Positions 3,697 through 34,611 of a DNA stretch of 64,000 nucleotides are shown here, piece by piece. A model generated the notes under the pieces. It was given only the letters and a program-made list of their open reading frames with translations. It ran no database searches and was not told the DNA's origin. The DNA is from a virus, in IMG/VR virus record IMGVR_UViG_3300038441_001119, positions 62,001 to 126,000 of that record; one strand, 5' to 3'. Numbering within the stretch: position 1 is the first letter of the stretch; every line of letters begins with the position of its first letter. Made by a program: the position numbers and the translations under genes.

Positions 3697-3775
3697 TGGC
3701 GCCCGCGCTCGGATTCGAACCGAGAACCTTCTAGCCTAGGAACCAGACGCCTCTAACCGTTGAGGCTACGCGAGC
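3697..3775 (-). tRNA. tRNA-Arg-like (anticodon CCU) with an 8-base anticodon loop
   Basis: 79 nt with encoded CCA. The acceptor pairs perfectly (GCTCGCG/CGCGGGC, one G-U). D-arm GCCT/AGGC, T-arm CTCGG-TTCGAAT-CCGAG. The anticodon stem TCTGG/CTAGA leaves eight loop bases, TTCCTAGG, one more than normal. With U33 in its usual place the anticodon is CCU (Arg, AGG codon). Forcing a 7-base loop destroys the stem. It may be a +1 frameshift-type tRNA or a decaying gene. Confidence 0.8.
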
Positions 3776-9123: not shown

Positions 9124-9199
9124 TGGCGCGGAGAGATGGAATCGAACCACCGACTGGCGCAGTTTTCACCACGCAGCTCTACCACTGAGCTACCTCCGC
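9124..9199 (-). tRNA. tRNA-Phe-like (anticodon GAA) with an 8-base anticodon loop
   Basis: 76 nt with encoded CCA. Acceptor GCGGAGG/TCTCCGC, D-arm GCTC-AGTGGTA-GAGC, T-arm GGTGG-TTCGATT-CCATC. The anticodon stem GCGTG/TGCGC uses two wobble pairs and leaves eight loop bases, GTGAAAAC. U33 precedes GAA, so Phe is the best reading. The loop expansion repeats what is seen in the tRNAs at 3697 and 9214. Confidence 0.75.
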
Positions 9200-9213: not shown

Positions 9214-9291
9214 TGGTACGAGGAGATGGATTTGAACCACCGACCCCCAGCGCCAAAATGCTGGTGCTCTACCGGACTGAGCTATCCTCGA
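9214..9291 (-). tRNA. tRNA of uncertain identity with an 8-base anticodon loop
   Basis: 78 nt with encoded CCA. Acceptor TCGAGGA/TCCTCGT pairs except for the terminal 1-72 U-U. D-arm GCTC-AGTCCGGTA-GAGC, T-arm GGTGG-TTCAAAT-CCATC. Anticodon stem CCAGC/GCTGG is perfect and encloses eight bases, ATTTTGGC. Read from the 5' side the anticodon is UUU (Lys); shifted by one it is UUG (Gln), and a UGG (Pro) reading would leave only one base after the anticodon. Isotype not decided. Confidence 0.7.
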
Positions 9292-19641: not shown

Positions 19642-21561
19642 TTATCTATGTTTCCTGTTCCTTACTTCGTCCAAGTCCAGCTTACCCGCAAGGATGTCTT
19701 CCATCTCTTGTCGCTTTAATCCAAGCAAATGCCGGATTGATTCTGCAAACGCAGGATTAGGGATGCGGAAGGGGAGGGTGATCTTGCCCCATCCGTTATT
19801 ACCCACAATCGCAGGGTCGAATAACCCTCCAGTGACAGGTGCCATGTTGTTCAGATTGAGAAGTTCCCCTTTCTGAATCTCGATGGCGTTCTTGTCATCC
19901 ACGTCTTTGTCAGTGGTAGGAGCAAGGCGCAGAATACCTTTACCAACATTACGAGGAGTAATACCGGCACCTACCATTGTGTTCATAGTCTTGTCCCATG
20001 AGAAAGGGACGCCCGGTTTAGCAGGAGTCAATCCCATACGCAGTGCTCTCCAGTACTCATCGTTTTGTTGACCGCGAAGAGTAATACCTTCCCTCAGGTT
20101 ATTGTAGGCACCAGAGGAGAGCATAACGTTGGACTCCAGTCCGGAAAGTCGTTTGGAACCACCGCCTTCTCCCGAACCTTTCGCAGGTTGACGGAACAAG
20201 TCGTAGCCACCCTGACCGCGAGAAGAAGCCTTACTCGACGAGGTATGGTGAAGTTTGAGCATGTAGGCGTTACCTACAAGCACAGGGTTCTCAAGAAATT
20301 GATTGGTCTCTGGATCGAAGATTTCCTCTTCGTCAGGGATTCCCGCTTCTTCCAGTTTTTGAAGAACGGTTTCGTACCACTTCTCGCCGGGTTTGGTGAA
20401 TCCGGGAAGTTTGATGGGCTTACCTTGAGCGGCAGCCACCTTACCCAACATGATCTCGTACAACAGGGAGTTGTTGGTACGCGATGGAATGGAAAGAGGA
20501 TTAAGAAGAACATCCAAAGGCTGACCATCCTTGGTGCGTGGCATCTTCTCATCAGGGATCACAAGGGATACGGTACCCTTCTGACCAGTACGGTAGACAA
20601 CCTTGTCACCCTCTTTGGTAGGGGCGTAGGCTTTGGTAACCACTTTGACACCTTTGGGTGTGTGGAAAACATCAACAACTTCAGCAGGATACTCTTCTTC
20701 CCAGACGGACGAAGAATCACCACGTGCCTGAGACATCGTTTTCGTGAGCTTGCCGACGTTTACACCGGCAGACGAAATAACACGAGGTCTGGTGGAAAGA
20801 ATGATAGGATCGCCGGGGTCTAGGATCTGACCTTTCTGAACAACTCCACGTTCATCCAGTTTAGCGAGTTGTTTCTTGTGGAACTTCTCAGGGAACAGGG
20901 AGCGGAAATGACCAAGGCCACCCTTGATGTCCCGGTCATACTCCTGTTCGTGTGTCTCCATGTGTTCGCTGACCATATTGTCTGCGAAACCTTTACGAAG
21001 GACGATAGCGTCGTCCATGGAGTAACCTTTATATGGAACCACAGCCACACGGGTATTCATTCCCATCGCCGCTGTGCCGTTGTCGTCCGTATAGTTGGAC
21101 GTAGCCAGCAGACCTCCTGCAGTGAACTTGTCTCCTACCTTTACCTTGGAAGTGTTATGGATACCAGACTTACGGTTGAAGCTCTGGTTATTGTAGATTG
21201 CTCGTTTCTTTTTCTCTCCAGTGGCGTTCTTGTAATGAATGTAATCAGGCGTGACTTCAGTCACCTCGCCATCTTCATCCGCAAACACAGCTCCCAGATC
21301 TTTACCGAGCTTTTCATCGAAGGAGAACCCACCATCGTCGGTGGTATCAAGGTTCTGCACCCATGGAGCTTCACGGTTGCGTAACGGCATAGCTTGGTTG
21401 TCGAATCGAGCGCCGTAGAATAGACGCGGACCCTGAACACCAGACTGAATAGGAATATGATTGATGTGAGTACCAAACAGATTCTCGTGAGAGATCAATT
21501 CGTAATCAATTTCATCATCATCAAAGTCCTGAATCTTACCGTTCCTGTAACCTACCGGCAT
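19642..21561 (-). CDS. RNA polymerase beta subunit, C-terminal part
   Basis: 639 residues matching the C-terminal half of bacterial RpoB. Recognisable blocks: residues about 40-60 (GVQGPRLFYGARFDNQAMPL, equivalent to the ALMGxNMQRQAVPL region), KGYSMDDAIVLRK at 178-190 (GYNxEDAIxxSE), GQKGTVSLVIPDEKMP at 326-341, DVLLNPLSIPSR at 350-361, and YMLKLHHTSSSKASSRGQGG at 432-451 (the YMLKLxHxVDDKxHAR block). It helps form the active site and the interface with beta'. The N-terminal and middle parts are separate genes at 54147 and 53374, so beta is split in three. No beta' (NADFDGD) gene is in the window. Confidence 0.92.
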   Translation of the reverse strand: MPVGYRNGKIQDFDDDEIDYELISHENLFGTHINHIPIQSGVQGPRLFYGARFDNQAMPLRNREAPWVQNLDTTDDGGFSFDEKLGKDLGAVFADEDGEVTEVTPDYIHYKNATGEKKKRAIYNNQSFNRKSGIHNTSKVKVGDKFTAGGLLATSNYTDDNGTAAMGMNTRVAVVPYKGYSMDDAIVLRKGFADNMVSEHMETHEQEYDRDIKGGLGHFRSLFPEKFHKKQLAKLDERGVVQKGQILDPGDPIILSTRPRVISSAGVNVGKLTKTMSQARGDSSSVWEEEYPAEVVDVFHTPKGVKVVTKAYAPTKEGDKVVYRTGQKGTVSLVIPDEKMPRTKDGQPLDVLLNPLSIPSRTNNSLLYEIMLGKVAAAQGKPIKLPGFTKPGEKWYETVLQKLEEAGIPDEEEIFDPETNQFLENPVLVGNAYMLKLHHTSSSKASSRGQGGYDLFRQPAKGSGEGGGSKRLSGLESNVMLSSGAYNNLREGITLRGQQNDEYWRALRMGLTPAKPGVPFSWDKTMNTMVGAGITPRNVGKGILRLAPTTDKDVDDKNAIEIQKGELLNLNNMAPVTGGLFDPAIVGNNGWGKITLPFRIPNPAFAESIRHLLGLKRQEMEDILAGKLDLDEVRNRKHR

Positions 21562-25200: not shown

Positions 25201-25397
25201 TGTGATAGGCGTGTCAGTGTGTTTTGGTGTCTTTGTTTGTGAAGTTCAGCAGCTCTAGCAATGATAGCCTCATCACTAAGGATCTGCAGCTCAAGCCAAC
25301 GAGCGAAGCCAGCGTCAACGATTTCCCGTGGACGCCCTTTGACTATTCGGACCTCTGCCTTTGCATTGGTCAGAGGAGTGTTAAGCTCCGAATTCAT
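25161..25397 (-). CDS. Small helical protein, 78 aa
   Basis: Starts MNSELNTPLTNAKAEVRIVK. Predicted helical C-terminal half with basic residues. Overlaps the end of the upstream gene by 17 bases and the start of the downstream gene by 40, so translation is probably coupled. Function unknown. Confidence 0.55.
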   Translation of the reverse strand: MNSELNTPLTNAKAEVRIVKGRPREIVDAGFARWLELQILSDEAIIARAAELHKQRHQNTLTRLSQWLKRHNPLQRFH

Positions 25398-25977
25398 GTA
25401 CTATTTTCCTTTCCACCATGTCGAGCACATGCCCCCAGTCGAATTCATGAGTCGACAGAGCGTAGCTGTGCACGTCCTTACCGTCTAGATCTCGAAGACC
25501 TGTGGGACGCGTTTCGTCACGGAAGTAGGTCATAGCTTCTTCCAGACTGTCGGTCGCTCCACGGAAATCTTCCAGACCGCCGCCCGGGTAGTAGCTAGGT
25601 CCTGCGAATACCCAGAACCTTCCCATAGGAATTGCATTGAGAGGAGGGTTGGTCAGTACGGGGGTAGACAGTGCGTTGGGAGGAACAATTAGCTTTTCCT
25701 TTAATTCCTGCACCATCTTGTGAACAGAGGCCAAGGTGATGGGAGGCTTAAGGGAGACATACACCTGCTCACTGTCCTTGAGAATATGTCCTCCATCTAG
25801 AGGTGCTCCACCAGATGCAGCAGAAACGATCAACTCACTGGTTTCCGGTAACCCAAAGTCTTCCCGGAATTCACGGTTGGATTTCAGACGATCCACACTC
25901 CAACCCGGATCAATCCAGTAATCGTGGTTGATGCCGTTTACTGCGACTTTGATCTTGTTACGTTTGACGACGCTCAT
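25381..25977 (-). CDS. Protein with N-terminal ubiquitin-like domain
   Basis: 198 residues from the ATG at 25977, which overlaps the upstream TGA as ATGA. Residues 8-75 (KIKVAVNGINHDYWIDPGWS, then REFREDFGLP and EQVYVSL) follow the same pattern as each repeat of the 34162 protein: beta hairpin, DRQFKEDFxLP-type helix, then beta strands. This suggests a beta-grasp fold. A separate C-terminal domain (about 85-198) contains GRFWVFAGPSYYPGGGLEDF. It may be a ubiquitin-like fusion that docks on, or is processed by, the E1/E2/JAB set. Confidence 0.6.
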   Translation of the reverse strand: MSVVKRNKIKVAVNGINHDYWIDPGWSVDRLKSNREFREDFGLPETSELIVSAASGGAPLDGGHILKDSEQVYVSLKPPITLASVHKMVQELKEKLIVPPNALSTPVLTNPPLNAIPMGRFWVFAGPSYYPGGGLEDFRGATDSLEEAMTYFRDETRPTGLRDLDGKDVHSYALSTHEFDWGHVLDMVERKIVHEFGA

Positions 25978-26236: not shown

Positions 26237-27499
26237 TTAGAACGCTTGGTACATCCGTTTACCGGAACGCTTCGAAGGGGTGAGCCTCAGGGTGGAGCCG
26301 TCGACATGCGTAATAAGAACCGAGGAGTCCGTATTGCGGATGATGCTGGCGATCTCACGGTTATACCAAGTGAGGGAACGGCTGTAGCTGCCTACGCGTG
26401 CATTGGGGTTATCCTCGTCCGTGTCATCAGTTTCAGCACGAAGGTACTGAACGTTGATGTAGTCGTCTTCATCAGGACCGAATTGCTGGAACGGAGAGGC
26501 AAACGACGCTTTGTAGAAAGCTGGAACTTCTTTGATATACTTCAGAAGTTTCTCGTCGACACTATCAAGGGCAGAAGCAATACCGTAACGCTTGGAGTTG
26601 CGGACGATATTGCGGATGGAGTAAGCGTAAGCAGCCGCGTGCTTGTCCTTCTCCTCCAGCTCGACGAAGTTATCGACCAGAGCAAGAACCGAAGTGCGCA
26701 GCTCGGCATCGAATTCAACACTCTCGTCGCTCTCGACATTGAGGAACGAAAGGAACTCCGAAGGAGGTTCATTGAACATCTTGGCTTCATTGATGATCGC
26801 CATCAGGGAGTCCAGCGACAAACCGAAGATAGTCTCGGCCGCCTTGATAACCGCATCCCGAAGATCACCCTCTGGGATCTGGTCACAGATGACAGCACGG
26901 AAAACGTCCTGACTGAGGGCGTCGTAACGCTTGTGGTAACGAACACGCCCCGGACGACTGTTGATGAAGGTGTTGACGTTCGGGTCGTTCGAGGTGAGGA
27001 CGAACAAGTGGGCAGTCGAAGAAGTACCGTCAAGAAGCGTGAGAAGATGAGCGGAATCCTCCTCGCTGTAGATCTTCTCGAACTCGTCCATGATGACGAC
27101 GCATTTGACAGGGATCTTCTGTAGGAAGTCCGAGAACTCTGAACCTTTGAAGAACGAGTTGATAAGCAGGACGGGCGACTTGGACTTGAGTCCGATCATC
27201 TTGGCGGCGACAGACTTGCCCGCACCCGATTTGCCACTGAGGAGAACGCCGATACCACGTTCAAGTTTGTGCCAAGCGGCGAGAGCGCGGTCAACGAACT
27301 TGTCGTCTTCACCGTAGATCTTTTTCGGAAGTTCGAGATCTTCTTTGATTTTCAGGTAGAAACCACTCATGTCGGCTGCGACTTCATACACGCCGACTGG
27401 GAGACCCTTGACGGGAGTGGATGCGCCATTGGTAAAACGAACTTCATTACCATTGGTGACGGAGTAAATGGGCGCTACAGTTGTTGTTTTTTCGGACAT
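26237..27499 (-). CDS. AAA+ ATPase
   Basis: 420 residues from the ATG at 27499; the longer frame crosses a terminator-like hairpin. Walker A GKSGAGKS at 89-96, Walker B CVVIMDEFEK with D138-E139, sensor-1-type LFVLTSND, and an arginine-finger-type region GRVRYHKRY. The N-terminal 60 residues form a small beta domain and the C-terminus ends in a basic strand (RLTPSKRSGKRMYQAF). Phage AAA+ proteins of this size act as remodelling or clamp-loader-like motors. Its place between the ubiquitin-like cassette and the 25381 protein raises the possibility of a segregase or unfoldase role. Confidence 0.8.
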   Translation of the reverse strand: MSEKTTTVAPIYSVTNGNEVRFTNGASTPVKGLPVGVYEVAADMSGFYLKIKEDLELPKKIYGEDDKFVDRALAAWHKLERGIGVLLSGKSGAGKSVAAKMIGLKSKSPVLLINSFFKGSEFSDFLQKIPVKCVVIMDEFEKIYSEEDSAHLLTLLDGTSSTAHLFVLTSNDPNVNTFINSRPGRVRYHKRYDALSQDVFRAVICDQIPEGDLRDAVIKAAETIFGLSLDSLMAIINEAKMFNEPPSEFLSFLNVESDESVEFDAELRTSVLALVDNFVELEEKDKHAAAYAYSIRNIVRNSKRYGIASALDSVDEKLLKYIKEVPAFYKASFASPFQQFGPDEDDYINVQYLRAETDDTDEDNPNARVGSYSRSLTWYNREIASIIRNTDSSVLITHVDGSTLRLTPSKRSGKRMYQAF

Positions 27500-27518
27500 A
27501 TTGGGTGCTGAGAGGAAA

Positions 27519-27571
27519 TAAAAAAATAGAAAGGTGAAATGGAGGAGTGCCGCCATGCCGACACCCCTCCA
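27519..27571 (-). terminator. Terminator or attenuator before the AAA+ gene
   Basis: Stem TGGAGG/CCTCCA with inner GTG/CAC (27540-27571), followed on the minus strand after a few bases by a T-rich run, CTATTTTTTTATTTC. It ends the structured region 27575-27887 and lies only about 20 bases before the AAA+ start, a layout typical of attenuation or of an sRNA 3' end. Confidence 0.65.
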
Positions 27572-29021: not shown

Positions 29022-30686
29022 TCACAGGCTTTGAAGGTACTGCCCGATGGCAGCTGCATTCTTGCCCATGATCGGACTGTTCTTCGTGTCGTACATTACC
29101 GTTTGCTGGATGAAGCGGAGAGCTTCTTCAGCGCCTTTGCGGAGATGCTTGTTCTCAGAATCGGAATGCAGCGTAAGCATGCGGTCGATCATGAGACGAG
29201 ATTGATCTGAAGGCTTATTCAGCTGCGGCAGACTGTTGAGGGTCATTGCAATGTCCTTGTGGGTAGCGACACCCACTTCTGGAAGAACATTGATCATGTG
29301 CTGCAAACCAGAGATGGCTTCGTAACGCGACAGGGAAAAGCGCGACGACACTTCGAGGAAGAGGTGTGGAATCTTCCAGTCGGCGGAATTGATAGCTTCG
29401 TTGTTGTCAACGTCGGTATCAATAGTCGTCGCCGAATCTGTTCCAATAGGCTTCCCATTGCGAGTAATCATCGATTCCGAGATCCCCGTCACGATAGTCT
29501 TTGGGCGAGCGGGCACGCCACCCGCGCCTCCGGAAGGATAGGATGAACCATGACCACTGTAAGTCGTTCCTCCACTATAGCGACCACCTTGGCCTCCTCC
29601 GTAGTAGTTGCCACCACCATGATGGCTGGAATAGTTTGACTTTACTTCGGTGATACAGTCTTTCCACTCTTCGGGGAAGCCCTCGTCCTTGATGTGGGTT
29701 ACCCAGTGCAACGACAGCTTCTCGCGGACTTCCGCAGGAAGGGAGGCATCCCAACCGGGAACTGCGATGATGTGACCGAAGTCCTTCACCGGTACCAGCT
29801 CGGAGTTCGCAGGCAGAACGCGGTTACCTTGGTTGTCATACTCCGCAGACATCTTCACCCGGATACGGGCATGGATGTCGATAGGATACACAGCCATCTT
29901 GCCGACGGTGATATGGAAGCCCTGCTTGGTCGTCTCGTCGTCCTTGTCGGTCGCAGAGTCGAAAGCGCCCATATGAACGTGGTTGTGGGTTGTACCGTGC
30001 CAGTCACCGGAGTTGACGCCAAACTGCTCACGCAGCTTTGCGAACACTTCAAGGTTCTCCTCGGTCTCGTAATCCACCTTGACCGTCATTGCTCCACGTG
30101 TGATGCGCTGATGGAATGGGAAGTGGATGTATGCACCAGCCTCAGTGAGAAGGTGCGAGATGTGGGTCTCGGCGTTGTAGGTCTTGACCGACCAGATGTG
30201 GTACGCCACGATCTGTTTCCAGTCGTCGTACGTGATCTTCGGAGCGAGGATCTTCAGCTCCGGAGCTGCTGATTCCATGTTGAAACCAGCCGGTGGCGTT
30301 TCAGTCCACCCACGGAAGAACCTGTTTTCACGCGGAGCATAGAGCTTGCTGCCGCTGATCCGCAGACCACCTGCAGGCATTGCGACCTGTACGTACCGTG
30401 GATCCTCTTCTTCTGGGGCTGGTTCGGACGTAACAGTGATTACCGGTTGCTTGGCAACTGCAGCCGTTGAGGCTCCTGCTGTCGGCGGTACCATCGGGTT
30501 GACGCGCACTGGTTCTTCCGGGTTACTGAGGTCTGCGTTGGCAATGGCTTCGTCAACAGTTCGATTGGTGTTGTTACCCTTACCTCCTCCGCGAGGACCA
30601 CCTTGGTTCCGTTTGGACTTGTCGATGGTCTGGCCTTGCCCGCCCTTTCGGTTGGACCCTCCTTTGTTGTGATTGGTTTTGGCCAT
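29022..30686 (-). CDS. JAB/JAMM-domain metallopeptidase (deconjugase-like)
   Basis: 554 residues from the ATG at 30686. After a Gly/Asn/Lys-rich disordered N-terminus (1-45) and a Pro-rich linker, residues about 110-280 form a JAB/MPN domain with a complete JAMM motif: H234-N-H236, S244 and D247 in THNHVHMGAFDSATDKDDE, with E173 as the likely catalytic Glu. This zinc protease family includes deubiquitinases and the PRTRC protein A and BilC-type enzymes, which mature or remove ubiquitin-like proteins. A Gly/Tyr/Ser-rich linker (about 365-410) leads to a helical C-terminal domain. Fourth large gene of the cassette begun by the ubiquitin-like gene. Confidence 0.8.
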   Translation of the reverse strand: MAKTNHNKGGSNRKGGQGQTIDKSKRNQGGPRGGGKGNNTNRTVDEAIANADLSNPEEPVRVNPMVPPTAGASTAAVAKQPVITVTSEPAPEEEDPRYVQVAMPAGGLRISGSKLYAPRENRFFRGWTETPPAGFNMESAAPELKILAPKITYDDWKQIVAYHIWSVKTYNAETHISHLLTEAGAYIHFPFHQRITRGAMTVKVDYETEENLEVFAKLREQFGVNSGDWHGTTHNHVHMGAFDSATDKDDETTKQGFHITVGKMAVYPIDIHARIRVKMSAEYDNQGNRVLPANSELVPVKDFGHIIAVPGWDASLPAEVREKLSLHWVTHIKDEGFPEEWKDCITEVKSNYSSHHGGGNYYGGGQGGRYSGGTTYSGHGSSYPSGGAGGVPARPKTIVTGISESMITRNGKPIGTDSATTIDTDVDNNEAINSADWKIPHLFLEVSSRFSLSRYEAISGLQHMINVLPEVGVATHKDIAMTLNSLPQLNKPSDQSRLMIDRMLTLHSDSENKHLRKGAEEALRFIQQTVMYDTKNSPIMGKNAAAIGQYLQSL

Positions 30687-30690
30687 GGTA

Positions 30691-32121
30691 TTAGATGAAC
30701 TGCGGAGTAAGCTGATCGGGTTTGAAGGTATTGATTGCCAGAATTTTGCTATGAGCTTTCTCAAAGGCTACGATAGGTTGAGGATCTTTCGGATGTGCGG
30801 CAGCTGCAAATTCCGCGAAATGCTTCGCAGCAGTTGCATCACGCAGGTGTATCCCTGCATGAGAGTTGTCACCAGTAGCACTGATGGTCGAGGTGAATGA
30901 CGTGGGACTCACGTTCTTGGAAGTGTGCGTAGGGAAGTACATCACACCATAGAAGAACGGGCCGTCGATCCACTGATTGAAGAACTCCTGTGCGTAACCC
31001 CAGAGGGCTTCGGCGTTCAGGATGTCTCCGGGCATCTTGTTGATCGCAGTACTGTTTTGAGCCGTGAGGATCGAAAGCTGATACGAACTGTCATACGGAG
31101 CACGTTGAACGCTGCGAATCCTGATGGCACCACGAGTAGTACCCTCTTGGGAGAGAGGGCCGCCCAGCATCTTCTCGATACCGACGCGTGTGGCTTCTTG
31201 GAAAGTCGCAGCACCACCTGCAGAGGGTACAACGAGGTACGATACCGACAGCGAGACCATCTTGGGCTTGAACGCAGGTGCGTCCCAGATGGACCGCGCC
31301 ATGTTCTTGTTGATAGTCATCTGTGAAACACCGCCTCCAACATCCCCAAACAGAGTGGAGAGACGCTGAGAACCAGCGATGGAGTGAGTGATACCAGCGA
31401 GAGGTGAGTTCTCGAAGATGAAGATCGGACGCAGCAGGGCGACGATAAACTTCCGTGAATCCGCCGGACCATAGTAGACACCGTTGGTAACAGGGATGGT
31501 TGCCTGAATGCAGTCAGCGATAGCCATCTTGGTCTCGCTGTTGCGGAGGGCCAGAATATGAGAGATATCCTGCAGAATGTGGGCTGGAGCACCCAGACGA
31601 GCGCGACCTTGGTCACCCCCACCTGTACTGGCAGAATTCTTCAGCATTCGCAGCATGTTCTTGTTAGCGTCCTCCTTTCTACGCAAGAACGAGAATTTTG
31701 GAGATTCGTAAACTTCCATGAGATCTTTGTGGGTGATCTCATCGAACTTCGTATTCATGAATGCGGCAGCAGCTGGTTCCCAGCTTTGCTGAATCATGCG
31801 GGCGACAACCTTGGAACGGAAGTCAGCGCCGTAGGCAGTAGGCTCTGGGACAAACGCAGGGATGTCTGCAAGGGGAATACCTTGGATGGCGTCGGTAGTC
31901 GAGGTAGTCCACGTGCCGCTGCTGAAGGTCAGGAGACGAACAGGCGACCCACTAGAACCGACGATTGTCGAGGTTACCGGGGGAGTCGGGATCGAGAACT
32001 GCCAAGCTGGAGCTGGAGTGGCTGGAGGTGGCGGAGTTTCGACTGCTGCAGCGGCTGGGGCCTTGTCCTTTTTGGCTGCAGTTTTGGTTACCCTCTTGGT
32101 GGCTTTCTTGGTAGTACTCAC
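30691..32121 (-). CDS. Hypothetical protein of the ubiquitin-like operon, 476 aa
   Basis: GTG start chosen because it forms a GTGA overlap with the E1-like stop. The N-terminus is a basic then Pro/Ala-rich tail (KKATKRVTKTAAKKDKAPAA). The body (about 75-476) is mixed alpha/beta with no motif I recognise. Its position between E1 and JAB genes, with coupled translation, makes it a candidate for a substrate, scaffold or ligase-like partner. It contains very few cysteines, which argues against a RING- or HECT-type E3. Confidence 0.6.
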   Translation of the reverse strand: MSTTKKATKRVTKTAAKKDKAPAAAAVETPPPPATPAPAWQFSIPTPPVTSTIVGSSGSPVRLLTFSSGTWTTSTTDAIQGIPLADIPAFVPEPTAYGADFRSKVVARMIQQSWEPAAAAFMNTKFDEITHKDLMEVYESPKFSFLRRKEDANKNMLRMLKNSASTGGGDQGRARLGAPAHILQDISHILALRNSETKMAIADCIQATIPVTNGVYYGPADSRKFIVALLRPIFIFENSPLAGITHSIAGSQRLSTLFGDVGGGVSQMTINKNMARSIWDAPAFKPKMVSLSVSYLVVPSAGGAATFQEATRVGIEKMLGGPLSQEGTTRGAIRIRSVQRAPYDSSYQLSILTAQNSTAINKMPGDILNAEALWGYAQEFFNQWIDGPFFYGVMYFPTHTSKNVSPTSFTSTISATGDNSHAGIHLRDATAAKHFAEFAAAAHPKDPQPIVAFEKAHSKILAINTFKPDQLTPQFI

Positions 32122-32837
32122 GTCAGTTTCACTTCAGTTGCTTCTTCATGCACTTCCGCTTTCGGGGCTTCCATTGGAATATCCTTGAAGCGGACACTGG
32201 TGACACCGTTGCGGGTGCCCTTGATTTCTGCTGGCACATTCTCCAGACTTGCGCAACGCTGCAGAGCATTGAACAGCCAGAGCATGAAGCTACCAGCGTT
32301 GTGGTTGGCAATCGGCAGTTGAGGTGCTGACTCGATTGCTTCGACGGTATTGCAGCTTTCGCCGGGGCCACGACCATCAGGGACGATGTTGTGGCGCACG
32401 TATGGGTCGCGATAGGTATCACCCCATTCCGGTATGAATAGGTATGCCTCGGGGTCTTCTTCTTCATTGGCACCCCAGATGATCGGGATGTCCATGCGTT
32501 CCGCGATCTTTTTCGCGTAGCAGCGTGCGTCGTGGTTGTCGACAGCCACGAACAGAATCTTGACATCGTCAGGAAGCTCGGTCATGTCGGAGATATAGGT
32601 CTCCATGCATGTGATCTTCTTGTCGGTGAACTTATCGTACATCGAGGCGTAGACTTTCGCCTTGTTTTCCGAGTCACCAAAGTGTGCGCCGATTTGACGA
32701 AGAGTATTCTTCTTCTCAAACTTGTCGCCATCGATGAGGAGCAGGTTGTGCGTCATCATGAGGGCGGGCAGGATGTGGGAGGTGACTCCTCCACAACCGA
32801 TAATGGCGATTGTATCAAAGGATCGTTCGATCTTCAT
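32118..32837 (-). CDS. E1-like (ThiF/MoeB superfamily) activating enzyme
   Basis: 239 residues. Nucleotide-binding GxGG motif (G14-C-G-G17 in AIIGCGGVTSHILPAL), LLIDGDKF with D36 and D38, then N44 and R47-Q48 in KKNTLRQ, as in E1/ThiF adenylating enzymes. C162 in GPGESCNTVEAIESAPQLPI sits where PRTRC-type ThiF proteins carry a conserved Cys and is the candidate thioester site. It would adenylate the C-terminus of a ubiquitin-like protein and pass it to an E2. Lies between the E2-like and JAB genes. Confidence 0.85.
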   Translation of the reverse strand: MKIERSFDTIAIIGCGGVTSHILPALMMTHNLLLIDGDKFEKKNTLRQIGAHFGDSENKAKVYASMYDKFTDKKITCMETYISDMTELPDDVKILFVAVDNHDARCYAKKIAERMDIPIIWGANEEEDPEAYLFIPEWGDTYRDPYVRHNIVPDGRGPGESCNTVEAIESAPQLPIANHNAGSFMLWLFNALQRCASLENVPAEIKGTRNGVTSVRFKDIPMEAPKAEVHEEATEVKLT

Positions 32838-32846
32838 GAGTGGGTG

Positions 32847-33062
32847 TTACAGAGACTTGGACTGGTAGGTGGGGTTGTGTTTAGCAAAGATATCCCCGAG
32901 GATGCGGAGAGTTTTGCTAGGGATTTTGGGTGCTGGTTTCGGAGTCGTGAACTCCGTGATTCCTGCGGACAGGATATCAGCTGCGGCTTTGTCAGTGGGG
33001 GCTGCGCGGGCTTTAGCTGCTAGTGCGAGGAAGAAATCCCCGTCTTTTTTCTTAGCTGCCAT
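32847..33062 (-). CDS. Small protein of the ubiquitin-like operon, 71 aa
   Basis: Basic, Ala/Lys/Pro-rich (MAAKKKDGDFFLALAAKARA), ending KTLRILGDIFAKHNPTYQS. Tightly packed between the E2-like and E1-like genes with gaps of 3 and 9 bases. Not recognised; an accessory subunit is a guess from position. Confidence 0.6.
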   Translation of the reverse strand: MAAKKKDGDFFLALAAKARAAPTDKAAADILSAGITEFTTPKPAPKIPSKTLRILGDIFAKHNPTYQSKSL

Positions 33063-33065
33063 TTA

Positions 33066-34016
33066 TCAATCCCAGATAGGAGGGAGGGTTGCGGTGACCG
33101 TGCGAGCAATGGTTTTGGGGAACACAATGTGTAGATAGGGAGCAAGATCCCCTTCGTCAGCAATGCGTACTTCAGCGGTCATACCTGTCATCGTCTTGGA
33201 GACATCGAGGTTACCGGGAGATTCTTCGAGGTCGATGAAGACGTCGTTGAGACCGCGTGGTCCGAAAGCACCACGGGAAACCTGCGGGGACATACAGATG
33301 CGCCCGTCGTCGAAGATGTTATAAAGCGGAGGCTGATACAGGCGCTTGGTGGACTGCTCGACCATGTAGATGTACTGGGAGACATATCCCGGTTCACTGC
33401 GAGAACCAGCCTGCTCGGGATGGCTCTGACGTTGAACGAACATCACTTTGTCAAAGCCACACTCCTTGGCATTGATCGCGCACTTCCAGTTCATGGAGTT
33501 CTGGTTGAGATAGTGTCTGGAGTACTCCAGACCACCGCGATCCATATTGCTGGTGTATGGCTTGAACTTGATGGTTTTCGAAGCACCATCCCAGTAAGGA
33601 ACAAATGCACCGTTCCAAGTGCAGTAGTCCATGATCCAGATCTGCCAGATTTCACCGGCACGTTTCCACATCGACCATTTGATGTCTTGTGCGACACCAT
33701 CCACCTGAACCATCCGTTCAGTGGCCCTCATGATAGGTTCGAATGTGTCGCCACCAGTGATGTGCGAAGCGGCGATCTGTTCCACTTCCTCAATGGTGAT
33801 TTTGGCAAGGGTGAACTCACCGGGTTTGACCGATGGCATGAAGGCCATCATTGACGTTGCTGGTTTGTCCACTCCGATCACGAAACTACTCGCAGCAGGA
33901 CGCTGGATAGCTTCATAAACGATTGCATCGCCAGCAGGCGGTGCAGGTGGCGGACCTCCAGCGATATCAGCTGCGACTGCGGCAGCTTCTTCTTGTGGGG
34001 CAGCGGTTGCGCTCAT
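33066..34016 (-). CDS. E2-like protein (PRTRC protein B / Prok-E2 type)
   Basis: 316 residues. Pro/Ala-rich N-terminus (1-35), then a mixed fold ending in PPLYNIFDDGRICMSPQVSR, with C241 in a position matching the PxxNVYDxGRxCxG segment of PRTRC protein B, a proposed E2-like family in which that Cys carries the ubiquitin-like protein. Other Cys residues (C132, C179, C186) do not sit in such a motif. The assignment rests on this segment plus adjacency to a ubiquitin-like, an E1-like and a JAB gene; overall similarity is remote. Confidence 0.55.
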   Translation of the reverse strand: MSATAAPQEEAAAVAADIAGGPPPAPPAGDAIVYEAIQRPAASSFVIGVDKPATSMMAFMPSVKPGEFTLAKITIEEVEQIAASHITGGDTFEPIMRATERMVQVDGVAQDIKWSMWKRAGEIWQIWIMDYCTWNGAFVPYWDGASKTIKFKPYTSNMDRGGLEYSRHYLNQNSMNWKCAINAKECGFDKVMFVQRQSHPEQAGSRSEPGYVSQYIYMVEQSTKRLYQPPLYNIFDDGRICMSPQVSRGAFGPRGLNDVFIDLEESPGNLDVSKTMTGMTAEVRIADEGDLAPYLHIVFPKTIARTVTATLPPIWD

Positions 34017-34047
34017 TTAGGGTGTTGTAGATAAAAACAAAGAAAGA

Positions 34048-34077
34048 GGGGTGACACACGTTTCCGCATGTCACCCC
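34048..34077 (-). terminator. Terminator between ubiquitin-like and E2-like genes
   Basis: 9-bp stem GGGGTGACA/TGTCACCCC, then CTTTCTTTGTTTTTATC on the minus strand. Suggests that the ubiquitin-like gene is also made as a separate short mRNA. Confidence 0.75.
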
Positions 34078-34123
34078 CGCAGTTTGTTGCCACCTCCGAT
34101 ATGGACTATCAAAGGTAGCCCGT

Positions 34124-34154
34124 GAGTGAGGTTCAGTCTTCCCGAACCTCACTC
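34124..34154 (-). terminator. Hairpin after the ubiquitin-like gene
   Basis: Perfect 11-bp stem GAGTGAGGTTC/GAACCTCACTC with a 9-base loop, 7 bases past the stop. No U-tract. Probably protects the mRNA 3' end or acts with the 34048 terminator. Confidence 0.6.
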
Positions 34155-34161
34155 TGGATAA

Positions 34162-34611
34162 TTATGCCAATGCCTTGGACGAGGCGACGGTTTGGACAGT
34201 GATGACATCACCGGCCGAAAGCGTCACGTTGGATTCAGAGCCGTTGACGAACACGCGGATGTTCGAAGGAAGAGCGAAGTCCTCCTTGAACTGACGGTCG
34301 TTTTGAAGCGTAGAGGTGGTGGTGCCGTACGGGACGTAGAAGTCGCTGCGGTTGCCATTGACATGGACAATCACTTTGACACGTGCAGCTGCCTTGGACG
34401 AGGCAACGGTTTGCACTTCGACGATGTCCGAAGCGGCGAGTCGCTTGTCCGCAGTAGAACCGTTAACGATAATACGGATGTTCGAAGGAAGAGCGAAGTC
34501 CTCCTTGAACTGCCGATCACTGGCGAGAGCCGAGGCGTAGGTACCGGTTGGAACCCACCAGGTGTTGGTATTGCCGTTGATTTTGACTGCGATTTTGATG
34601 CGAGCTGCCAT
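34162..34611 (-). CDS. Tandem ubiquitin-like (beta-grasp) protein
   Basis: 149 residues from the ATG at 34611; the longer frame has an unlikely N-terminus crossing promoter-like sequence. Two near-identical repeats, about 4-74 and 77-149, each with a beta hairpin (RIKIAVKINGN / RVKVIVHVNGN), helix DRQFKEDFALPSNIR, a central strand and a final strand EVQTVASSK / TVQTVASSK. Size, pattern and the double-domain layout resemble ISG15 and BilA-type proteins or PRTRC protein C. The C-terminus is SSKALA, not Gly-Gly, so conjugation would need trimming or different chemistry. The same domain recurs in the 25381 protein. Confidence 0.65.
   Translation of the reverse strand: MAARIKIAVKINGNTNTWWVPTGTYASALASDRQFKEDFALPSNIRIIVNGSTADKRLAASDIVEVQTVASSKAAARVKVIVHVNGNRSDFYVPYGTTTSTLQNDRQFKEDFALPSNIRVFVNGSESNVTLSAGDVITVQTVASSKALA
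34256..34512 (-). repeat. Direct repeats inside the ubiquitin-like gene
   Basis: A 38-base perfect direct repeat (34256-34293 and 34475-34512), offset 219 bp (73 codons); another shared block surrounds 34172 and 34391 at the same offset. Shows a fairly recent in-frame tandem duplication of the domain. Confidence 0.85.

What the first reader, a model, noticed from the sequence alone, without database searches (positions are those of the whole stretch)
34162..34611. Ubiquitin-like protein duplicated in tandem and lacking a terminal Gly-Gly
Two 73-residue copies with a 38-base perfect DNA repeat show recent in-frame duplication. Each copy ends VQTVASSK-A; the protein ends SSKALA. Known conjugated Ubls need a free Gly or similar end, so either the JAB enzyme trims it to an unusual residue, or the protein is a non-covalent decoy of host ISG15-like proteins.
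Basis: partly seen in the sequence, partly recalled or inferred. Interest (0 to 1): 0.7.

Follow-up and report, generated by a model that had tools for sequence, protein, structure and literature searches.

The report
Phage ubiquitin-like modifier ending in alanine
A large phage encodes its own ubiquitin-like tagging kit (modifier, activating enzyme, conjugating enzyme, trimming enzyme), and both copies of its modifier carry alanine exactly where all 73 distinct related phage modifiers compared carry the glycine used for attachment.

Summary
In detail: 34162-34611 (-) encodes two 73-residue repeats with a 38-bp perfect repeat, no Gly-Gly, each ending ASSKA. AlphaFold2 gives two beta-grasp domains with the first ASSKA in the disordered linker (closest folds: linear di-ubiquitin, ISG15). 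The "recent duplication" reading is not supported: synonymous sites are mostly diverged outside short identical tracts, so an old duplication with later gene conversion is likelier.

The gene sits beside an E1 (ThiF, catalytic Cys kept), an E2-D-like protein (Cys kept) and a JAB peptidase (E-HxH-S-D kept), a diverged cousin of plasmid PRTRC / Iyer type-6d cassettes. Related cassettes are common in large phages; all 53 distinct Ubls of its E1 clade and all 20 of the PRTRC-like phage type end in Gly, nearly all GxKG, often as 2-3 tandem copies. The window's ASSKA aligns ungapped to AGxKG: the Lys is kept, the terminal Gly is Ala.

Best explanation: a polyUbl precursor cut by its JAB after each SSKA to give an alanine-ended modifier, activated by its E1 and passed to its E2. 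Alanine ends have precedent in CBASS cGAS. The ISG15-decoy idea lacks support. Main weakness: no close relative, so conservation of ASSKA beyond this phage is untested.

The parts
34162..34611 (-). Tandem ubiquitin-like protein, 149 aa, two beta-grasp domains
   Evidence: ORF; AF2 model with two bb-a-bb domains, mean pLDDT 80.7; best PDB matches linear di-ubiquitin Z 8.3-8.8 and ISG15 Z 7.4-7.8
34390..34608 (-). Ubl copy 1 (residues 2-74)
   Evidence: 62% identical to copy 2
34171..34389 (-). Ubl copy 2 (residues 75-147)
34390..34404 (-). Tail ASSKA of copy 1, followed by AAR; inferred JAB cut after Ala74
   Evidence: Equals the AGxKG end of relatives in an ungapped alignment; residues 71-75 have pLDDT below 50
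34171..34185 (-). Tail ASSKA of copy 2, followed by Leu-Ala and stop
34475..34512 (-). 38-bp perfect repeat, copy 1
34256..34293 (-). 38-bp perfect repeat, copy 2
34047..34154 (-). Three consecutive strong hairpins (34124-34154, 34089-34119, 34047-34078, the last terminator-like) between the Ubl and E2 genes
   Evidence: MFE -72.5 kcal/mol, z -8.96; terminator scan; coordinates
33066..34016 (-). E2-like protein, family D type, catalytic Cys241 in LYQPPLYNIFDDGRICMSP
   Evidence: Prok-E2_D E 0.0023 and PRTRC_B E 0.018, both below cut-off; Cys shared with Arash, D69 and Cupriavidus PRTRC_B
32847..33062 (-). 71-aa protein of unknown function; a small gene also precedes E2 in Arash and D69
   Evidence: position only
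32118..32837 (-). E1 (ThiF family), 239 aa, single adenylation domain, invariant Cys162
   Evidence: ThiF E 3.6e-14; conserved DGD, N44, R47, Q48, K59, D100, R105, C162 against 54 distinct relatives; tree clade support 0.949
30691..32121 (-). 476-aa protein (GTG start) of unknown function between E1 and JAB
   Evidence: no family match; only marginal similarity to the F-position proteins of Arash and D69
29022..30686 (-). JAB/JAMM peptidase, 554 aa, motif E173...H234xH236...S244xxD247
   Evidence: invariant columns in a 46-sequence alignment; AF2 model matches PfJAMM1 at Z 11.7
25381..25977 (-). Third Ubl domain, N-terminal part of a 198-aa protein with a phrog_1411-type C-terminal domain; paralogue, tail VSLKPP, no Gly end

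Best explanation
A phage-encoded ubiquitin-like conjugation cassette whose modifier is made as a head-to-tail dimer and ends in alanine. Proposed steps: (1) the JAB peptidase cuts after Ala74 and Ala147 (SSKA|AAR and SSKA|LA), releasing Ubl monomers that end in ...SSKA; (2) the ThiF-type E1 adenylates the C-terminal Ala and takes it as a thioester on Cys162; (3) the Ubl passes to Cys241 of the E2 and on to targets; (4) the resulting Ala-linked conjugates are probably poorer JAB substrates than Gly-linked ones. Shown here: fold, genome context, intact catalytic residues of E1, E2 and JAB, and Ala at the exact place of an otherwise invariant Gly. Inferred: processing, activation, conjugation, targets, slower deconjugation.
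For: Two beta-grasp domains with the inner ASSKA disordered. E1 and JAB keep every catalytic residue tested and the E2 keeps its Cys. 53/53 distinct Ubls of the same E1 clade end in Gly and have Lys before it; 50 read GxKG and three SRKG, DRKG or DTKG. 20/20 PRTRC-like phage Ubls end GTKG or GNKG, and Cupriavidus PRTRC_C ends GAKG. Register is exact: from the [GS]D motif to the last residue there are 12 residues in both, and profile-profile alignment is ungapped there (P 3.3e-4). Tandem precursors are normal in these cassettes: 2 copies in L010, L011, L015 and L024, 3 in Vibrio phage D69, each copy keeping TGTKG although the D69 cores are only 44-60% identical. Residues after the terminal Gly also occur in relatives (C, YK, A, INYSK). 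No other KG-ended Ubl was found in the virus record. Precedent for Ala: cGAS in Cap2/Cap3 operons ends in Gly or Ala, the Ala-ended E. cloacae protein is conjugated, and Gly-to-Ala in E. coli cGAS lowers conjugation without abolishing it (PMC10097602). Ub G76A makes isopeptides more resistant to DUBs (PMC5298413).
Against: Only this one genome shows the Ala end; no close relative was found, so selection on ASSKA cannot be tested. The identity of the two tails may reflect gene conversion. A family HMM built without the window only weakly matches the window Ubl (E 0.22 in the window, although it is the only hit among 876 ORFs and both copies hit in register). The third Ubl domain of the genome also lacks a Gly end. 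Serine, which is here at -4 and -3, is not the issue, but -4 Gly is also lost. No expression or biochemical data.
Confidence: 0.55

Rival explanations
1. It stays an intact two-Ubl protein, like ISG15 or BilA, and only its trimmed C-terminus is conjugated; the inner ASSKA is just a linker.
For: Two domains in one chain with a short linker; closest folds are linear di-ubiquitin and ISG15. BilA is a two-Ubl protein (PMC11354881).
Against: The inner copy keeps the full ASSKA tail. In D69, diverged copies all keep TGTKG, which fits cutting at every site. BilA-type enzymes were not recognised.
Confidence: 0.17
2. The Ubl has lost conjugation and works non-covalently, as a binding or decoy protein or as part of a larger assembly.
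For: Loss of Gly at both -1 and -4; the third Ubl domain of the phage also lacks Gly; the Ubl gene is separated from the enzyme genes by three strong hairpins.
Against: E1, E2 and JAB all keep their catalytic residues, which is unexpected if nothing is conjugated. The Lys at -2 and the tail length are kept.
Confidence: 0.17
3. A sulfur carrier of the ThiS/MoaD type: the E1 activates the tail for thiocarboxylate formation.
For: ThiF-type E1; weak MoaD-family match of copy 2 (E 8.9e-5, below cut-off); MoaD-like sequence pattern.
Against: An E2-like protein and a JAB are present and no rhodanese or sulfur gene was recognised among the cassette genes; ThiS and MoaD themselves end in Gly-Gly (own knowledge).
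Confidence: 0.05
4. A decaying gene: the tail is drifting after loss of function.
For: Single genome; long E1 branch; unusual E1 substitutions.
Against: Intact ORFs for all parts, intact active sites, and both copies kept open and foldable despite mostly diverged synonymous sites.
Confidence: 0.04

Closest known systems
Phage MoaD-like Ubl cassettes of the same E1 clade (L039, L082-L129 and others; not named in the libraries searched)
   Same: E1 in one clade (support 0.949), JAB and a beta-grasp Ubl with the VNG...L..GD pattern and a tail of the same length with Lys at -2
   Different: They end KG (53/53), are single Ubls usually on a longer N-terminal part, and the Ubl usually follows E1; the window has a tandem, SSKA ends, and the order Ubl - E2 - 71 aa - E1 - 476 aa - JAB
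PRTRC system of plasmids (PRTRC proteins A, B, C, ThiF; Iyer 2006 operon type 6d, PMC1779556)
   Same: Ubl, E2 family D, JAB and ThiF-type E1 in one cluster; E2 Cys motif nearly identical (LYEPPYFNTWDQGQICIG against LYQPPLYNIFDDGRICMSP)
   Different: No window protein reaches the NCBIfam cut-offs; no PRTRC_C match; C-terminus not GxKG; other gene order
PRTRC-like cassettes of Salmonella phage Arash and Vibrio phages D69, D181, D148
   Same: Phage-borne Ubl - F-position gene - small gene - E2 - JAB - E1 (read in Arash and D69); RNA polymerase beta related to the window's (32-34%); D69 has a 3-copy Ubl precursor
   Different: All Ubl ends are TGTKG; their JABs match PRTRC_A at 1e-20 to 1e-21, the window's does not
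CBASS Cap2/Cap3 with Ala-ended cGAS
   Same: Conjugation through a C-terminal alanine by a bacterial E1/E2 with a JAB deconjugase (PMC10097602)
   Different: The modifier there is cGAS itself, not a beta-grasp Ubl
BilABCD / ISG15
   Same: Two Ubl domains in one protein, with E1, E2 and JAB
   Different: BilD is a pseudodimeric E1 with a Cys domain (PMC11354881); the window E1 is a 239-aa single ThiF domain; no Bil-type match

Membership tests
PRTRC system / Iyer type 6d | ThiF, A, B and C proteins over the NCBIfam cut-offs | tested here: not met
   PRTRC_ThiF 17.2 bits (cut-off 144.75), PRTRC_B 14.4 bits (131.45), no PRTRC_A or PRTRC_C match; PRTRC_C gives no match in the whole record
PRTRC system / Iyer type 6d | Small Ubl with a highly conserved C-terminal glycine | tested here: not met
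   Ala in both copies
PRTRC system / Iyer type 6d | Separate E2 (family D), JAB and ThiF-type E1 in one gene cluster | tested here: met
   E1 and JAB clear, E2 by motif and weak profile match
Canonical conjugated ubiquitin-like protein | Beta-grasp fold | tested here: met
   AF2 and VIA-align
Canonical conjugated ubiquitin-like protein | C-terminal Gly exposed at maturation | tested here: not met
   No Gly in the last 12 residues of either repeat
JAMM/JAB peptidase (window:29022-30686) | E...HxH...SxxD motif and JAMM fold | tested here: met
   invariant in 46 sequences; Z 11.7 to PfJAMM1
E1/ThiF (window:32118-32837) | Nucleotide-binding and catalytic residues including Cys | tested here: met
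   Pfam ThiF E 3.6e-14
BilABCD | Two-domain E1 with a Cys domain, and BilA with a C-terminal Gly | tested here: not met
   239-aa single-domain E1; Ala end; PADLOC gives only weak E1-E2 matches
Iyer type 6e polyUbl | 1-3 Ubl repeats with an E1 fused in most cases to JAB | tested here: not met
   E1 and JAB are separate genes here; the E2 has its Cys, whereas the 6e E2-like domain lacks it (PMC1779556)
Any of these | Covalent conjugation to targets | not testable with these tools
   needs biochemistry

The most novel reading that the evidence does not exclude
A true beta-grasp ubiquitin-like modifier that has switched its conjugated end from glycine to alanine, with an E1 that co-adapted (Gly123 to Ala, unique among 127 other E1 sequences compared, Ser to Trp121, and Gly to Thr19 shared with one other), so that the phage makes tags its JAB removes slowly or not at all.
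Probability: 0.3. Interest if true: 0.75.

Novelty: new variant of a known kind. Interest (0 to 1): 0.55.

Why it matters
The terminal glycine is usually treated as the defining feature of a conjugated Ubl. A natural Ubl with intact E1, E2 and JAB partners but alanine at that place makes it directly testable whether the glycine rule is absolute for beta-grasp modifiers and whether the end residue tunes reversibility. The survey behind it also shows that complete Ubl cassettes are common in large phages, with a shared GxKG end and frequent tandem precursors. That gives a sequence-based handle on what these phage modifiers do; in the relative Arash, proteins of the cassette have been reported from purified virions.

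Tried and rejected
Rejected: recent duplication (synonymous sites mostly diverged). Rejected: loss of the JAB catalytic Glu; in small alignments the window seemed to have Asn there, but larger alignments place E173 in the invariant column. Rejected: sequencing error at the tail, because both copies carry the same GCA codon. Not supported: a hidden KG-ended Ubl elsewhere in the virus record (HMMs and end-pattern scan). Led nowhere: Pfam, NCBIfam and PHROGs gave no family over cut-off for the Ubl; back-translated searches with the Ubl, E1 or E2 alone found no viral relative; DNA megablast of 20000-44000 against phages found nothing; the 476-aa gene has no convincing relative. The first PRTRC and Ubl literature searches returned nothing specific on phage cassettes; most subscription papers and all preprints are outside that library, so novelty is judged only against what was held.

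Full report
What is there. The window is part (62001-126000) of a 212,352-bp virus record. The ORF at 34162-34611 (-) encodes 149 aa made of two 73-residue repeats that are 62% identical, each ending ASSKA; the protein then ends LA. The 38-bp perfect DNA repeat is real (34256-34293 and 34475-34512). A codon comparison shows that outside codons 34-45 and 67-74 most synonymous sites have changed, so the duplication is old and the identical tracts are better explained by gene conversion (longest run of identical codons, permutation P 0.004).

Fold. AlphaFold2 from the single sequence gives two bb-a-bb domains at mean pLDDT 80.7, with the inner ASSKA (residues 71-75) disordered. The best PDB matches are linear di-ubiquitin complexes (Z 8.3-8.8) and, a little lower, ISG15 (Z 7.4-7.8). 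Middling Z values alone are weak, but full-length matches to two-Ubl proteins, together with the context, make the beta-grasp assignment safe.

Context. On the same strand follow an E2-like protein (33066-34016), a 71-aa protein, a ThiF-family E1 (32118-32837, Pfam E 3.6e-14), a 476-aa protein and a JAB peptidase (29022-30686). The E2 match to Prok-E2_D is weak (E 0.0023) but its Cys motif LYQPPLYNIFDDGRICMSP is close to that of Cupriavidus PRTRC protein B, LYEPPYFNTWDQGQICIGS. The E1 keeps every catalytic residue tested, including an invariant Cys162 (54/54). The JAB keeps E173, H234, H236, S244 and D247 and its model matches PfJAMM1 at Z 11.7. Three consecutive strong hairpins separate the Ubl gene from the E2 gene (z -8.96), so the Ubl is probably transcribed and terminated as its own unit (inference). 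A second Ubl gene, a single domain fused to a phage domain of unknown function, lies at 25381-25977.

Relatives. The phage RNA polymerase beta is related (32-34%) to those of Salmonella phage Arash and Vibrio phages D69, D181 and D148, and these also gave weak E1 hits. The two that were read, Arash and D69, carry a cassette in the order Ubl, F-position gene, small gene, E2, JAB, E1, matching the plasmid PRTRC order C-F-B-A-ThiF. Their JABs match PRTRC_A at 1e-20 to 1e-21 and their E1s match PRTRC_ThiF at 1e-15 to 1e-18, although below the curated cut-offs. A scan with the JAB alignment found 66 viral loci, and a scan with the window's E1 and three relatives found 48 viral loci and 11 in MAG contigs of bacteria and an archaeon. 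An HMM seeded with the window and four other Ubls found Ubls of this type in 63 loci, 61 of them within 1.5 kb of the E1.

The tail. All 53 distinct Ubls of this type outside the window end in Gly with Lys before it, and all 20 distinct PRTRC-like phage Ubls end GTKG or GNKG. Some carry one or more residues after it (C, YK, A, INYSK). Two to three tandem copies occur in several, and in D69 the diverged copies (44-60% identical cores) all keep TGTKG. In the window, from the [GS]D motif to the last residue of each repeat there are exactly 12 residues, as in the relatives, so Ala stands where Gly stands and Lys where Lys stands. Profile-profile alignment agrees without a gap. Sequence similarity alone is modest: an HMM made without the window scores it at E 0.22, although it is the only hit in the window and both copies hit in the same register. 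In the E1 tree the window lies on a long branch inside the clade whose Ubls end in KG (support 0.949), so the change to Ala is most simply derived on its own lineage.

How it most likely works. The JAB would cut the precursor after each SSKA; the E1 would activate the Ala end; the E2 Cys would receive it. Alanine is an acceptable end for a bacterial E1/E2 pair: cGAS proteins of Cap2/Cap3 operons end in Gly or Ala, the Ala-ended E. cloacae protein is conjugated, and Gly-to-Ala in E. coli cGAS lowers conjugation and raises the Cap2 thioester (PMC10097602). Ub G76A makes isopeptide bonds more resistant to DUBs (PMC5298413), so slower deconjugation is a plausible consequence. The E1 has unusual substitutions in otherwise near-invariant loops (Thr19, Trp121, Ala123), which could be co-adaptation, but one genome cannot show that and their position relative to the tail was not modelled.

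What was not shown. Nothing here demonstrates processing, activation, conjugation or a target. No close relative was found, so it is unknown whether SSKA is conserved. The most serious rivals are a di-Ubl that stays intact and a Ubl that no longer conjugates; the intact active sites of the three enzymes argue against the latter. Filing it as a PRTRC member fails on tested features, so it is called a diverged cousin.

Novelty. Phage-borne JAB and Ubl genes and bacterial E1/E2/JAB/Ubl operons, including 1-3 repeat Ubls, were described in 2006 (PMC1779556), and Ala ends are known for cGAS. A beta-grasp Ubl with an Ala end beside an intact cassette was not found in the papers searched, and it is rated a new variant of a known kind.

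Noticed in passing
window 3697-3775, 9124-9199, 9214-9291 (-): ARAGORN calls three tRNA-like genes with 4-base anticodons (ccta, gaaa, tttg), which could be frameshift-reading or degenerate tRNAs.
   Followed up: no
window 34047-34154 (-): Three strong hairpins in a row between the Ubl and E2 genes, MFE -72.5 kcal/mol, z -8.96; the last looks like a terminator.
   Followed up: partly
window 25381-25977 (-) and 26237-27535 (-): A Ubl fused to a phrog_1411-type domain stands next to a tRNA-Arg gene and an AAA ATPase (phrog_2376, E 2e-64).
   Followed up: partly
L003 (OQ632216.1), locus 104-304: The Arash Ubl, ending TGTKG, is not annotated; the annotated gp251c overlaps it in another frame.
   Followed up: partly
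Arash gp246-gp249, gp251 (OQ632216.1): The virion proteome table of Arash (PMC10585845) lists Gp246, Gp247, Gp248, Gp249 and Gp251; by GenBank numbers these are E1, JAB, E2, the small protein and the ORF overlapping the Ubl. GenBank labels only gp246c and gp248c of these as structural, so the numbering match is not certain.
   Followed up: partly
L130-L140: Cassettes of the window's E1 clade also occur in MAG contigs of Methylomirabilota/NC10, KSB1, Falkowbacteria, a Thermoplasmatales archaeon and others; whether these are proviruses was not checked.
   Followed up: no
window, genes of 100 aa or more on the - strand: Only 12 of 73 predicted starts have a Shine-Dalgarno-like word in the 24 bases upstream, which suggests a host that uses few such sites.
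   Followed up: no
window 19642-21561 (-): A phage RNA polymerase beta-type subunit, 32-34% identical to those of Arash and the Vibrio phages D69, D181 and D148.
   Followed up: partly
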